Made by a program: the position numbers and the translations under genes. The notes below the pieces were generated by a model, which saw only the letters and a program-made list of their open reading frames with translations, made no database searches and had not been told where the DNA came from. A stretch of DNA of 38,806 nt, from NCBI GenBank assembly GCA_017694335.1, contig JADIMZ010000062.1, positions 1 through 38,806 of the forward strand, read 5' to 3'. Below, in pieces: positions 15,142-21,584 of this stretch (position 1 is the stretch's first letter; each line of letters begins with the position of its first letter). The stretch is from Candidatus Pullibacteroides excrementavium (GTDB lineage: Bacteria > Bacteroidota > Bacteroidia > Bacteroidales > P3).

Positions 15142-15157
15142 GTGAGTGAGGCTTATC

Positions 15158-16537
15158 ATGAAGAAAGTCCATTTCATAGCCATCGGCGGAAGTGCGATGC
15201 ACAATCTGGCGATGGCTCTTCATTTAAAGGGATACCGGGTAAGCGGTTCCGATGACGAGATTTTCGACCCGGCGCGGAGCCGTCTGGCGCGTTTCGGCCT
15301 GTTGCCGCCCGATGAAGGCTGGCATCCGGAGCGGGTCACGCCCGATTTGGACGCGGTGATTCTCGGGATGCATGCCCGGAAGGACAATCCAGAGCTTCTG
15401 CGGGCCAAGGAACTGGGCTTGAAGATTTATTCCTATCCGGAATACTTGTACGAGCAGTCTAAGGACAAGCTGCGCGTGGTGGTTGGCGGAAGCCACGGCA
15501 AGACTACGGTGACGGCGATGATCCTGCATGTGTTGAAAGATGCCGGGATGGACTGCGATTATATGGTAGGGGCGCAGCTGGAAGGCTACGACATCATGGT
15601 CCGGCTTTCGGAAACGGCCCCTTTGATGGTCATCGAGGGGGACGAATACCTGACTTCGCCGATAGATCCCCGGCCGAAATTCCATCTGTACAAGCCGGAT
15701 ATCGCGCTCATCAACGGCATTGCCTGGGATCATATCAATGTGTTCCCGACTTTTGATAAGTACGTGGAGCAGTTCCGGATTTTTGCATCGACGATTTGTC
15801 CGGATGGCTGTCTGGCCTATTTTTCGGGCGACCCGGAGGTGGCGGCCATTGCGGCTGGGTTGGCTTCCGAAAGGCCGGATGTGCAGCTCTTGCCTTACGA
15901 TGTGCCGGAATACCGGGTGGAAAAAGGTTTCAGCGAATTGCTGTATCAAGGCAAGGCCTATCCGTTGCAGGTGTTCGGTCGGCACAATATGCAGAATATC
16001 GAGGCGGCTTGGCAGGTTTGCCGTCGTTTGGGCATCGCCGACGAGGTGTTCCTGAAGAGCATCATGAGTTTCAAGGGGGCTTCCCGGCGTTTGGAACGTA
16101 TCGGGGACAACCCGGTCTCGCAGGTGTCGGTCTTCAAGGATTTTGCGCATTCGCCTTCCAAGCTGCAGGCGACCATCGGGGCGGTCAAGGAGCAGTATCC
16201 TGAACGTAAATTGGTGGCTTGCATGGAGTTGCATACGTTCAGCAGCTTGAGCAAGGTCTTTTTCTCGCATTACAAGGGTTGCATGGACAAGGCGGATGTG
16301 GCTATGGTCTATTATAATCCCAAAGCGGTGGAACACAAGAAACTGGAACCGATTGACCCGCAGGCGATCCACGAGGCTTTTGCCTGTCCGAGGCTCAAGG
16401 TCTATAACGACAGTGCGCTTCTGGTTTCGGATTTGAAGTCGATGGACTGGCACAATGCCAATCTCTTATGGATGACTTCGGGCAATTTCGACGGGGTGGA
16501 CGAGAAAGCGCTGGCGGAAGAGGTTTGCAAGAAATAG
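15158..16537 (+). CDS. mpl: UDP-N-acetylmuramate:L-alanyl-gamma-D-glutamyl-meso-diaminopimelate ligase (Mur ligase family)
   Basis: 'MKKVHFIAIGGSAMHNLAMAL', ATP-binding 'VVVGGSHGKTTVTAMI', 'VFKDFAHSPSKLQATIGAVKEQYP'; Mpl-type rather than MurC. Confidence 0.88.
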   Translation: MKKVHFIAIGGSAMHNLAMALHLKGYRVSGSDDEIFDPARSRLARFGLLPPDEGWHPERVTPDLDAVILGMHARKDNPELLRAKELGLKIYSYPEYLYEQSKDKLRVVVGGSHGKTTVTAMILHVLKDAGMDCDYMVGAQLEGYDIMVRLSETAPLMVIEGDEYLTSPIDPRPKFHLYKPDIALINGIAWDHINVFPTFDKYVEQFRIFASTICPDGCLAYFSGDPEVAAIAAGLASERPDVQLLPYDVPEYRVEKGFSELLYQGKAYPLQVFGRHNMQNIEAAWQVCRRLGIADEVFLKSIMSFKGASRRLERIGDNPVSQVSVFKDFAHSPSKLQATIGAVKEQYPERKLVACMELHTFSSLSKVFFSHYKGCMDKADVAMVYYNPKAVEHKKLEPIDPQAIHEAFACPRLKVYNDSALLVSDLKSMDWHNANLLWMTSGNFDGVDEKALAEEVCKK

Positions 16538-16637: not shown

Positions 16638-17513
16638 TTAGAATTGATAGGAGATGGCAAGCTGGAGGGGTTTATGGATAAGCATCTTGTTCTTTTTGTC
16701 TCCTTCGTAGGCCATGTTTTTCAAGCCCCAATCTCCTCCTATTCTGAATTGCAGCCCTTTGTATCGGAACCCGATACCCACACCATAAAGAACGTTAAGT
16801 CTTCGGATATCCCAATTTTTATAATAATTGATGTCCGTTTTTTGTCCGGAATGCACATTCTTTACTTCAGCGGTTAGGCCCATTCCAATATCGAAGCTGG
16901 GGCCAGTATAAGCAAAAAGGCTGAAATCCTCAAAAAGTTCATACCGGTATTGCAGGCGGAGAGGAATGGACAAGGAGTGGTCTTTGACAGATATTTCGTA
17001 ATCTTCGGATTTTGTGTTCTCCATCATCAAATCGTAATAGATTCCTGTTTGGATACCGATGCCATACGCGATTTCGGGTGCTAAGAATAACCCGATGCTC
17101 AATCCATTGCTGAGTTTTTTAGGCGAACGGGAGAATTTGGAAGCTTCATCTTCTGAAAAATTATTGATTTCAGAAAGGAGAACCATGTTGGTGAGTCCGA
17201 TTCGTTTCCTGCCATCTATTTCTTCACCAGTGGCAACATCTCCGGGCACATTGAAGATGTAGCAAATTTGTTTTGTGGTATATCCGAAGGAAGCCCCAAT
17301 CCATCGGTTCTCGCCTTGCGGTCCTGCATAGAAATCGAATTCGTTGAGGTTGGTAGCTTGGCTGTTTGCTACTATCGGCTTTTGGGAAATGGTGTATTTG
17401 AAAGCGTTGGGGTGCTGTTGCGTTTCCTCATTGTTGTTATTGGTTGTACTTCCTTTTGCAAAAGCTGCAGTAGAAAGCAGAAAACTTGATATGATTAGAA
17501 TGGATGTTTTCAT
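16638..17513 (-). CDS. Outer-membrane beta-barrel protein (PorT-like), paralog 1
   Basis: Signal peptide, 'GLTNMVLLSE', 'APEIAYGIGIQTGIYYDLMMENTK', 'IPLRLQYRYELFEDFSLFAYTGPSFDIGMGL', C-terminal '...LAISYQF'. Confidence 0.82.
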   Translation of the reverse strand: MKTSILIISSFLLSTAAFAKGSTTNNNNEETQQHPNAFKYTISQKPIVANSQATNLNEFDFYAGPQGENRWIGASFGYTTKQICYIFNVPGDVATGEEIDGRKRIGLTNMVLLSEINNFSEDEASKFSRSPKKLSNGLSIGLFLAPEIAYGIGIQTGIYYDLMMENTKSEDYEISVKDHSLSIPLRLQYRYELFEDFSLFAYTGPSFDIGMGLTAEVKNVHSGQKTDINYYKNWDIRRLNVLYGVGIGFRYKGLQFRIGGDWGLKNMAYEGDKKNKMLIHKPLQLAISYQF

Positions 17514-17543: not shown

Positions 17544-18391
17544 TTAAAATTGATAGGACAAGTTTATTGTGAAAGGCTTGTTGATGAAAAGTTTATAGGT
17601 GAAGTTGTTGTCTGTTTCTTTGACCATGTTGAGCAATCCCCAGTCGCCACCGGCTCTGAGTTGCAGGCCTTTCCACCTTATTCCGCCACCTACGCCGCAG
17701 AGAAGGTTGAATCTTTTCAAATTATTGTCATACAGGTTGTTGGCTTCGGTCGATGTTTTTTCATCGTTGAGAAATTCAGATACGTTAAAGGCAAGGCCTA
17801 TGTCAAAGCTTGGACCGGCATAAATGAAGAGGCTGAAATCCTTGGCTAATTCAATTCTGTATTGGATTCGTAGCGGAATAGAGAGAGAATGGTCGGTGGA
17901 ACTATACCTTGTATCTACGCCATCTGATTCCTCTTTGGCTTTTTCCATAGTGACATCGTAATAGATTCCTGTCTGGATGGCGATTCCATATTTGAATTCG
18001 GGCATCCACGTGAGGCCGATGGAAAAAGTATGGCTGTATTTCTTAGAAGATAGGCCGGTCAGGCTTGTTTTAGTGGTGGGAAGACTTTTATCAGAAGGTC
18101 TGATGCGGAATTGTTTCTGTCCGTATCCGACAGCTATGCCGAAGGGTCTTTTTTTGTTTTGTGGGTCGATGCTGAAGCGGAAAGGTGTTACAGGATTTTC
18201 ATCATAGGCATTACTTATGCTCTCTCTCTCTCTCCAATGGAAAAACCTGCATGAGACTCTTCGCTGACTTGCGCATACTCGGTGTTACCGAAATTGGAAT
18301 TCGTTCGGGCAGACGACATTGGGTTGCCTTGTGCCCACGCCATCGATAGGAAGGCAACCCCTCCCATGAAAGCAATGATTGATTTTTTCAT
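17544..18391 (-). CDS. Outer-membrane beta-barrel protein, paralog 2; currently out of frame at a (GA)7 tract (candidate phase-variable, OFF)
   Basis: ATG at 18391 gives signal peptide MKKSIIAFMGGVAFLSMAWAQGNPMSSART..., terminating at TAA 18217-18215 just after (GA)7. The barrel continues in another frame (...KKYSHTFSIGLTWMPEFKYGIAIQTGIYYDVTMEK...LSYQF) to 17544. Removing one GA unit joins both parts with no stop. Confidence 0.8.
18221..18234. repeat. (TC)7/(GA)7 dinucleotide microsatellite within coding sequence
   Basis: 'atgc tctctctctctctc caatgg'; 7 units inside the beta-barrel paralog 2 reading frame. Confidence 0.95.
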
Positions 18392-18641
18392 TTTGTACTT
18401 GTATTTGGGTTAATAATAGTATCCTCTTTTAACTATTGTCGTTTTTGAGGTTTTGTTTGGGATTCCTCAGCCTTGGTAGGGGCAAAGATACAATTTTTTT
18501 TATTTGCGCAGTTTTTAAGCTTTGTTTGTCACTCGGGGACTGTTCGAATGGTTTATCTCGGCTTCCGCAAAGGTAGCGATAAGATTGTTCCATTATAATG
18601 AATTTGGTAGAGGCTTGGCTCTATTTTATGGGGCGATAAGC

Positions 18642-18692
18642 GACAAGCGGGAACTGTGGCATGAGGACCTCATGCCACAGTTCCCGCTTGTC
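18642..18692. repeat. 51-nt perfect palindrome (25-bp arms, 1-nt centre)
   Basis: GACAAGCGGGAACTGTGGCATGAGG-a-CCTCATGCCACAGTTCCCGCTTGTC, located 19 nt past the end of beta-barrel paralog 3. Confidence 0.97.
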
Positions 18693-18710: not shown

Positions 18711-19685
18711 TTAGAACTGGTAAGATAAAGTGATATGGAAAGGCTTATGTAAATAATATCTGTCATTGGAATCGTAGCCTTTCATTATATCGATGAGTCC
18801 CCAGTCGCCACCAGCCCTCAATTGCAGCCCTTTATAGCGTAATCCGCCGCCTACGCCCCACATCACATTGAATCTTTGAAGGTTGGAAAGTTCGTAGATA
18901 TTGTATTTTTCAACCTCCGGTTCAATTAAGGAACCTGGGTAAGGGATTTCTTCTTCACGGATATTGAATGCGAGGCCGAAATCGAAGCTGGGGCCGGTAT
19001 AGAGGAACAAGCTGAAATCTTTGGCTACTTCGATGCGGTATTGGAACCGCAGCGGAATAGCCAATGCATGTTCGTTGGCAAAGTATGTATATACTTCTCC
19101 ATCTTTGGCTTTTTCCATGGTCAATTCATAATAAAGGCCGGTTTGCAAGCCAAAGCCGTAACCGAATTCCGGCGCCCATGTAAGGCCAATGAAGACGGTA
19201 TTGCTGTATTTTTTTTCAGGGATGTCTGGTAAAAAAAATGTCCTGAGCATAGCGTTTGTTAAGCCTGCCTTTTCTTTTTCTTCTCTCACAGTGCCATCAT
19301 CCTCAATAATTTTATACTTGCGGAGAAGGCTTTTCTGCGTGTACCCGATAGCTATTCCCACAGGCCTTTGTTTGGATTTGGGACTCGGAAGGTTTACTTT
19401 CTTCTTGGGGGCAGGTGGATTGGAAGCAGTGATTTCAGCAGGAGAAGGTTGCGCATTGAAAGCGGCAACTTCTCCATTGGAATAAATGATAGAAGAGATT
19501 TCGTTTGTTTTTAGTGAAAAAGTCGGACCATCCTGGAAATCGAATTTCTTATATTTGATTTCCTCTTGGCTGACTTCGATGATTTTGGCATCGATTCGTT
19601 TTGAGTCTTTGCAGACGATGATGTCCTGCGCCCAAGATAGCGTGGCTATCATGAGTCCCGATAGGATAGCAATTAGTTTTTTCAT
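18711..19685 (-). CDS. Outer-membrane beta-barrel protein, paralog 3
   Basis: Signal peptide; 'IIVCKDSKRIDAKIIEVSQEEIKYKKFDFQDGPTFSLKTNEISSIIYSNGEV' N-terminal module common in Bacteroidota; barrel with 'GLTWAPEFGYGFGLQTGLYYELTMEKAK' and 'HITLSYQF' C-terminus. Confidence 0.85.
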   Translation of the reverse strand: MKKLIAILSGLMIATLSWAQDIIVCKDSKRIDAKIIEVSQEEIKYKKFDFQDGPTFSLKTNEISSIIYSNGEVAAFNAQPSPAEITASNPPAPKKKVNLPSPKSKQRPVGIAIGYTQKSLLRKYKIIEDDGTVREEKEKAGLTNAMLRTFFLPDIPEKKYSNTVFIGLTWAPEFGYGFGLQTGLYYELTMEKAKDGEVYTYFANEHALAIPLRFQYRIEVAKDFSLFLYTGPSFDFGLAFNIREEEIPYPGSLIEPEVEKYNIYELSNLQRFNVMWGVGGGLRYKGLQLRAGGDWGLIDIMKGYDSNDRYYLHKPFHITLSYQF

Positions 19686-20301
19686 TTTTTTAGATTTTGT
19701 TTATTGTGCTTATAATGAATGTCCAATCATTTTTGATAAGATATACACATTCATGTCCGGAATTCTCCGGATGGTTTTTCGGTGCTTGGTCGTAGGGGAC
19801 ATAAAAGAAAAGTGTGAGATGCTTGCCTATTTGAGTAGAGGTTCTGGAATACCTGCGAGCAAATAAACAATACCCCACACTTGGCCGTATATATCAGAAT
19901 GATATATGCAGAACAAGCGATGAGCGTCATTGTCGTCCTTACTCGCGTGAAATTTTCCAGATTTCTACTTAAGGGCGCAAAACACTTTTCACTATATGTC
20001 GTCAGTTGCCTGACGCGGCAAAGATACGAAAAATGTCGAGACGCTTTGGGGTATTGTTTGGCAAAGTTATTCTTTTGTCATGATACGGGAAATTCGATGT
20101 GGTTTGCTTATTCCTTCCTTTAAGAATACTCGATTCTACCTCTTTGGCAATATCAGGACAGGCCAAATGCATTAAATTATGATAGGGGAGTAACCATTGC
20201 GTGGTGGTAAGTTGTCCGGTGGAGGTTGCGCTTGAAGCGGTTTTTGGAGATATGAGGGAAAACTAGTACCTTTGCACCCCTTTCTATGGCAAAGGCTTAT
20301 T

Positions 20302-20495: not shown

Positions 20496-20693
20496 ATGGC
20501 AACATTCAGCATCAATGTGCCGTATTCGACCGGAAAGATTTTTGAAGATGCTTTTGTGGGCAATTACGTTAGGCGGCAGTTTTGTTGCGCGTGAGGAAAA
20601 TGAAAATTTATACGTAAGTTTGTATTTTACCAATTAGGAATCAAGATATTTTCCATTGTGAAAAGGGGGGGTATACTGATTGCGAGAAGGGAA

Positions 20694-21584
20694 ATGAAAA
20701 GGCTTGTCTGTTTTCTGTGTTTAGTATTAGCCATGGCGATGCCTCTCTGCGCACAGCAACGTCATGCCGTGGTCATTGGCATTGGGGATTATCCGGAAAA
20801 TTCGGGATGGAAGAAGATACACGGCGATGCTGATATAGAGATAGTGTGTGCCATGCTCTCGGAAAATGGCTTCGAACCGCAGGATATCAAGGTGTTGAAA
20901 AACCGGGACGCAGACAAGGCTGCCATTGCCAAGGTTTTTGCGGATCTGGCTGCCGATGTCCAGAGTGGGGATTGGGTCTATGTCCATTTTTCCGGTCATG
21001 GGCAGCAGGTAAGCGATTTGGACGGGGACGAGGCTGATGGCTGGGACGAAGCCATTATTCCATACGATGCGTGCAGGGAATACAAGGCCGGGGTGTATGA
21101 GGGCGAAAACCATATAATCGATGATGAATTGAACCAGTGGTTGATGCCGATTGCGGACAAGATAGGGCAAGAGGGCTGTCTTTTAGTAGTGCTGGATGCC
21201 TGCCATAGCGGGGATGGCACAAGGGCGGAAGATGAGGAAGAGGATACGGTTCGGGAAACCGATATTCGAGGGACTGCGGACAAGTTCGAGTATGCGGGCT
21301 TTGATCCGGATTTGGCATCGCCCAAGACTCCGAGAAAGACAAACTGGATAGCATTGAGTGCCTGCAAGCCATATCAAAGCAATTACGAGTATTGGGATGG
21401 AAGCCGGTATGTGGGGCGCTTGACTTATGCCTTGGCGCAGCATTTTAGGATAGGTGTTCCGGTGTGCGATTTATTGAATGATATAGAGATAACCTATGAT
21501 ACATTGCCGCTCCGGCGGAATACCGTGCAAAATCTGAATGCCGATATTCCGGAACGGATGCGCGATAAATTGATTTTTAAATGA
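20694..21584 (+). CDS. Secreted caspase-family (metacaspase, peptidase C14) protein
   Basis: Signal peptide MKRLVCFLCLVLAMAMPLCAQ; p20 core 'RHAVVIGIGDYP', catalytic His 'VYVHFSGHGQQ', catalytic Cys 'VVLDACHSGDGTRA'. Confidence 0.92.
   Translation: MKRLVCFLCLVLAMAMPLCAQQRHAVVIGIGDYPENSGWKKIHGDADIEIVCAMLSENGFEPQDIKVLKNRDADKAAIAKVFADLAADVQSGDWVYVHFSGHGQQVSDLDGDEADGWDEAIIPYDACREYKAGVYEGENHIIDDELNQWLMPIADKIGQEGCLLVVLDACHSGDGTRAEDEEEDTVRETDIRGTADKFEYAGFDPDLASPKTPRKTNWIALSACKPYQSNYEYWDGSRYVGRLTYALAQHFRIGVPVCDLLNDIEITYDTLPLRRNTVQNLNADIPERMRDKLIFK

What the first reader, a model, noticed from the sequence alone, without database searches (positions are those of the whole stretch)
17544..18391. Candidate slipped-strand phase-variable outer-membrane beta-barrel gene: (GA)7 tract leaves the gene out of frame
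Seen directly: from ATG 18391 (minus strand) a signal-peptide ORF (MKKSIIAFMGGVAFLSMAWAQGNPMSSARTNSNFGNTEYAQVSEESHAGFSIGERERA*) stops right after (GA)7 at 18221-18234. The rest of the beta-barrel runs in another frame to 17544. Deleting one GA unit (or adding two) gives ...HAGFSIGERESISNAYDENPVTPFRFSIDPQNKKRPFGIAVGYGQKQFRIRPSDKSLPTTKTSLTGLSSKKYSHTFSIGLTWMPEFKYG..., a continuous ~281-aa protein that matches the flanking intact paralogs. The ORF track reports only the fragment 17544-18005, so the gene is easily missed. Established: dinucleotide tracts inside surface-protein genes drive phase variation in Neisseria, Haemophilus and similar genera, whereas Bacteroidota are better known for invertible promoters, so an SSR-controlled OMP would be notable. 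The downstream paralog starts 30 nt after this gene's stop, so ON/OFF switching could also have polar effects on it.
Basis: partly seen in the sequence, partly recalled or inferred. Interest (0 to 1): 0.78.

Follow-up and report, generated by a model that had tools for sequence, protein, structure and literature searches.

The report
Possible repeat-switched surface protein gene
An uncultured gut-type Bacteroidales genome carries an outer-membrane barrel gene that is intact except that a short GA repeat leaves it out of frame; the repeat could act as an on/off switch, but the data cannot tell such a switch from a gene recently broken at the same repeat.

Summary
On the minus strand a 58-codon leader (ATG 18391, signal peptide) runs into (GA)7 (18234-18221) and a stop. 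The other 224 codons, an OmpA-like beta-barrel (PF13568), are open in another frame to 17544. The tract is not chance: expected (GA)7+ in 1.54 Mb of this genome is 0.001, observed 3, and no other dinucleotide reaches 6 units. The barrel shows no decay: no stops, no excess of changes at conserved sites.

Beyond the finding: long GA/CT microsatellites (9-20 units) occur in 5 of 13 genomes of this genus against 3 of 177 elsewhere in the family. One orthologous intergenic tract has 12, 13 and 18 units in three species.

Against phase variation: most of these tracts are noncoding; one coding tract lies in an acyltransferase gene that also lost its start codon; and the barrel locus is empty in the nearest sister and decayed in two others.

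Slippage as the cause is well supported. Whether it is a selected switch (0.45) or a recent one-way break (0.42) cannot be decided without reads or strains. Literature searches returned no report of repeat-driven phase variation in Bacteroidales. Ordinary mechanism, unusual taxon.

The parts
18221..18234 (-). (GA)7 tract, slippage-prone; leaves the downstream frame out of register
   Evidence: genome-wide expectation
18215..18391 (-). OMP2 leader frame: start codon, signal peptide, tract, stop (58 aa)
17544..18218 (-). OMP2 barrel frame, 224 aa, PF13568, OmpA-like eight-strand-type barrel, no stops
   Evidence: conservation
18483..18490 (-). promoter-like -7 box TATCTTTG of OMP2 (Bacteroidota TAnnTTTG); a second such box at 18575-18568
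   Evidence: motif from general knowledge, not tested for function
18642..18692 (.). perfect 25-bp inverted repeat (hairpin, terminator-like) between OMP1 and OMP2
16638..17513 (-). OMP3, intact paralog 30 nt downstream of OMP2, likely co-transcribed
18711..19685 (-). OMP1, intact paralog upstream
15146..16537 (+). Mur ligase (mpl-like), left border of the variable locus
20658..21584 (+). caspase-domain (Peptidase_C14) gene, right border of the variable locus

Best explanation
OMP2 is a translational, slippage-switchable outer-membrane barrel gene now in the OFF state. Replication slippage in the (GA)n tract adds or removes 2-bp units. In one register the signal peptide is joined to the whole barrel. 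In the present 7-unit register translation ends at codon 59, before any barrel strand, and the untranslated remainder may also lower expression of OMP3 through polarity. Shown: the tract, the frames, the intact barrel, the non-chance nature of the tract, and rapid length change of a GA tract elsewhere in the genus. Inferred: that this tract varies within the population, that both states are kept by selection, and the polarity.
For: The tract is far beyond chance and all long dinucleotide tracts sampled in this genome are GA/CT. It exceeds the 6-unit cut-off used for dinucleotide phase-variation tracts in a Campylobacter survey (PMC6321876). The barrel part has 2 unique, non-radical deviations at otherwise conserved columns, no more than the intact paralogs (2 and 4), and mainly third-position differences. 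The tract sits between signal peptide and barrel, so OFF removes the whole barrel. GA tracts are genus-enriched, 5/13 against 3/177 (P = 3e-5), and one orthologous tract has 12/13/18 units in three species. Other GA/CT tracts of 12 and 22 units lie in frame at the N-termini of a TPR-LuxR-type protein (G007) and a PMT-like membrane protein (G031).
Against: No length variation of this tract could be observed; no ortholog carries it. 8 of 12 genus tracts of 7+ units are noncoding (my assignment). The G012 MBOAT gene with (TC)10 has also lost its start codon, which fits decay. The OMP locus is empty in G006 and decayed in G005 and G007. Seven units is short for fast switching.
Confidence: 0.45

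Rival explanations
1. Recent one-way pseudogene: the same slippage event broke a dispensable, accessory OMP copy, and nothing selects for switching back. The tract is one of many neutral GA microsatellites of this genus.
For: The syntenic locus is empty in the closest sister (flanking proteins 97-99.8% identical) and holds a 5'-truncated or internally deleted OMP1 relative in two others. Most GA tracts of the genus are noncoding. A (TC)10-bearing MBOAT gene in G012 is start-less, while sister orthologs without a tract are intact.
Against: No second lesion in 281 codons and no excess of changes at conserved sites; start codon, signal peptide and promoter-like box retained. This only shows that a break would be recent.
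Confidence: 0.42
2. Assembly or sequencing indel: the real gene has an in-frame tract and is simply ON.
For: Draft MAG-like assembly; repeats are error-prone; no reads available here.
Against: A 14-bp tract is well within a short read and flanks are unique; longer GA tracts were assembled elsewhere in the same genome.
Confidence: 0.08
3. Programmed recoding: ribosome or polymerase slippage on the GA run makes some full-length barrel from the present sequence.
For: Repetitive codons (GAG/AGA) could in principle allow 2-nt realignment (inference only).
Against: No X XXY YYZ slippery heptamer at the tract. The only start codon in the barrel frame upstream of the tract is a GTG followed by a stop, and the first one after it, ATG 18005, lies past the first predicted strands.
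Confidence: 0.03

Closest known systems
SSR-mediated translational phase variation (contingency loci, e.g. Neisseria opa, Haemophilus lic genes, Campylobacter surface genes)
   Same: Short repeat inside the 5' coding part of a surface-protein gene; unit gain or loss toggles the frame; surface function; repeat length above the survey cut-off (PMC6321876).
   Different: Bacteroidales host; GA dinucleotide, only 7 units; no observed variation; no orthologs sharing the tract; sister loci are lost or decayed.
Invertible-promoter phase variation of Bacteroides surface genes
   Same: Surface genes of Bacteroidales with possible ON/OFF states.
   Different: OMP2 is changed in reading frame, not promoter direction; no pair of inverted arms brackets its promoter. 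One candidate pair lies upstream of OMP1 only.
OMP_b-brl_2 (PF13568) outer-membrane beta-barrel proteins
   Same: Profile match above cut-off; predicted long antiparallel strands; Foldseek hits to OmpA-type barrels.
   Different: Only 43-53% identical to any relative found; ligand and function unknown.

Membership tests
SSR-mediated translational phase-variable gene | Repeat tract in the coding region, of a length at or above that used in surveys (6 or more dinucleotide units) | tested here: met
   7 units; cut-off from PMC6321876
SSR-mediated translational phase-variable gene | Change of unit number toggles between full-length and truncated product | tested here: met
   Frame arithmetic on the sequence
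SSR-mediated translational phase-variable gene | Gene otherwise intact and under constraint | tested here: met
   cannot exclude a very recent loss of constraint
SSR-mediated translational phase-variable gene | Tract length varies among cells or strains | not testable with these tools
SSR-mediated translational phase-variable gene | Tract kept at the same place in orthologs | tested here: inconclusive
   No ortholog of OMP2 found in 13 genus genomes; locus empty or reduced in sisters
Pseudogene by decay | Further disabling changes or relaxed constraint beyond the tract | tested here: not met
Invertible-promoter phase variation | Inverted arms on both sides of the OMP2 promoter | tested here: not met
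   only a hairpin (1-nt loop) and a pair far upstream, ahead of OMP1
PF13568 OMP_b-brl_2 | Profile score above gathering cut-off and barrel fold | tested here: met
   50.1 bits against 27; model and fold search

The most novel reading that the evidence does not exclude
This Bacteroidales genus has a GA/CT-microsatellite phasome: fast-mutating GA tracts at the 5' ends of outer-membrane, glycan-modifying and membrane-bound regulator genes switch them on and off, a mode of phase variation that I know of no report of in gut Bacteroidales, which are known for DNA inversion.
Probability: 0.22. Interest if true: 0.72.

Novelty: new member of a known kind. Interest (0 to 1): 0.42.

Why it matters
If the tract switches, gut Bacteroidales would have a second, replication-driven way to vary their surface besides DNA inversion, and surveys that look only for invertible promoters would miss it. 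Gene callers also miss such genes, because only a fragment is called. If it does not switch, the genus still offers a natural case of GA microsatellites growing in bacteria that mostly keep mutS and mutL.

Tried and rejected
Mismatch-repair loss as the cause of the tracts: mutS1 and mutL are present in the tract-bearing sisters; mutS1 was not found in the 84% complete own genome. A shared mobile element carrying the tracts within the genus: flanks differ from tract to tract, although G031 of another genus does have a shared element. Orthologs of OMP2 with other tract lengths: none. G012 MBOAT (TC)10 as a clean second example: start codon lost, so set aside. G012 glycosyltransferase with ATG-(GA)11: start unresolved. 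GA tracts inside promoter spacers in this genus: in the orthologous C32 locus the tract lies upstream of the promoter-like boxes. Other SSR classes as a genome-wide pattern: two G9 runs and one (CATA)7 at a contig end in 1.54 Mb, no clear excess. Literature: searches for SSR phase variation in Bacteroidetes, Bacteroidota, Bacteroidales, Flavobacteri- and Porphyromonas returned no report of it by title or abstract; of the review PMC11868660 only keyword passages were read, and its Bacteroides examples there are inversion-based where a mechanism is named.

Full report
What is there. On the minus strand, ATG 18391 opens a signal-peptide leader that meets (GA)7 at 18234-18221 and stops at codon 59; the following 224 codons are open in another frame down to 17544. 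The ORF list shows only the fragment 17544-18005. Two intact paralogs flank it: OMP1 18711-19685 and OMP3 16638-17513, the latter 30 nt downstream. All three match the outer-membrane beta-barrel family PF13568 above its cut-off. An AlphaFold model of the 224-aa part (mean pLDDT 72) has long strands beginning 26 residues into it, and Foldseek ranks OmpA-type barrels first, with modest TM-scores. The present product therefore contains no part of the barrel.

Not chance. In 1.54 Mb of the same genome (59%), an order-3 Markov model expects 0.001 GA/CT tracts of 7 or more units. There are three (7, 10 and 12 units), and no other dinucleotide reaches 6. A pattern search of the whole assembly finds no further (GA)6+ tract. 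AGA is 9% of Arg codons, so codon choice does not make the tract.

Not visibly decayed. The barrel half has no stop. It has 2 unique, non-radical deviations at columns otherwise conserved, against 2 in OMP1, 4 in OMP3 and 11 in a distant intact homolog. Differences fall mainly on third codon positions, as in the intact paralogs. Upstream there is a promoter-like TATCTTTG box (18490-18483) and a strong hairpin that separates OMP1 from OMP2. There is no slippery heptamer at the tract and no usable start just upstream of it in the barrel frame. These results speak against an old pseudogene; they cannot exclude a recent one.

The genus. Long GA tracts (9 or more units) occur in 5 of 13 congeners (own genome included) against 3 of 177 other genomes of the family. 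Lengths reach 20 units. One intergenic tract upstream of an AraC-type membrane regulator is orthologous in three species, with 12, 13 and 18 units, so such tracts change length quickly on the species scale. Coding cases in the genus: (TC)12 in frame in the signal peptide of a TPR-LuxR-type protein of G007; (GA)6 in frame in an exported protein of G004; (TC)10 out of frame in an MBOAT acyltransferase of G012, whose start codon is also gone while sister orthologs without a tract are intact; and ATG-(GA)11 before a glycosyltransferase frame in G012, unresolved. Outside the genus, G031 has (GA)22 in frame at the start of a PMT-like membrane protein. Of 12 genus tracts of 7 or more units, 8 are noncoding; I assigned these by hand, and the binomial test assumed 12% noncoding DNA rather than measuring it.

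The locus in sisters. The OMP cluster lies between an mpl-like Mur ligase and a caspase gene. In G006, whose flanking proteins are 97-99.8% identical, the barrels are absent. G005 keeps one 5'-truncated OMP1 relative; G007 keeps one with an internal deletion that breaks the frame. The cluster is accessory and is lost easily.

Weighing. That a change in tract length put the gene out of frame is well supported, since it is the only lesion and lies at the only slippage-prone dinucleotide tract of the window. Whether the gene flips back and forth under selection is not shown. In favour are the intact barrel, the position between signal peptide and barrel, the surface function, a tract above the survey cut-off (PMC6321876), and fast GA tracts in the genus. 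Against are the mostly noncoding tracts, the decayed MBOAT case, the dispensable locus and only 7 units. I put a selected switch at 0.45 and a recent one-way break at 0.42.

Known kinds. It would work like SSR translational phase variation of proteobacterial surface genes. The defining population-level variation could not be tested, so it is a candidate, not a member. Searches of the held library returned no paper on SSR phase variation in Bacteroidales; the library lacks most subscription papers.

Noticed in passing
window 19745-20070: Upstream of OMP1 two perfect 13-bp inverted arms (19865-19877, 20047-20059), 169 bp apart, enclose a promoter-like TATCTTTG box; a roughly 330-bp dispersed copy (L140:641-1000) keeps the arm cores. 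Looks like an invertible promoter or a mobile repeat; G005 has the same orientation.
   Followed up: partly
window 18642-18692: Perfect 25-bp inverted repeat with 1-nt loop between OMP1 and OMP2, folding at -48.9 kcal/mol; no U-run follows; no second copy in the sampled part of the genome.
   Followed up: partly
window 19209-19216 and 19231-19238: OMP1 carries two 8-nt A/T homopolymers 14 nt apart in its coding frame.
   Followed up: no
L084:8625-8652 (own genome, contig C20 end): A (CATA)7 tract shortly after an ATG and a TATCTTTG box; the contig ends in it, so the gene beyond is unseen. Possible second repeat-controlled gene.
   Followed up: partly
L173, L174, L175, L176 (genome G031, another genus of the family): Four GA tracts of 33, 18, 18 and 22 units each abut a shared sequence ending CTTCTGAAACCC..GGTTGTA (partial in L176), so a dispersed element seems to seed microsatellites there.
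   Followed up: partly
L178:3941-3962 (genome G164): (GA)11 followed by a long A run sits directly before a TACTTTTG box of a gene for a Por-secretion-tail protein: possible promoter-spacing repeat.
   Followed up: no
L180 (genome G004): A glycosyltransferase relative appears split between two frames at GGGGAGGGGGG.
   Followed up: no
genome G000: No full mutS1 match in the own genome (84% complete), while 11 of the 12 congeners have one over the cut-off; could be missing sequence.
   Followed up: no
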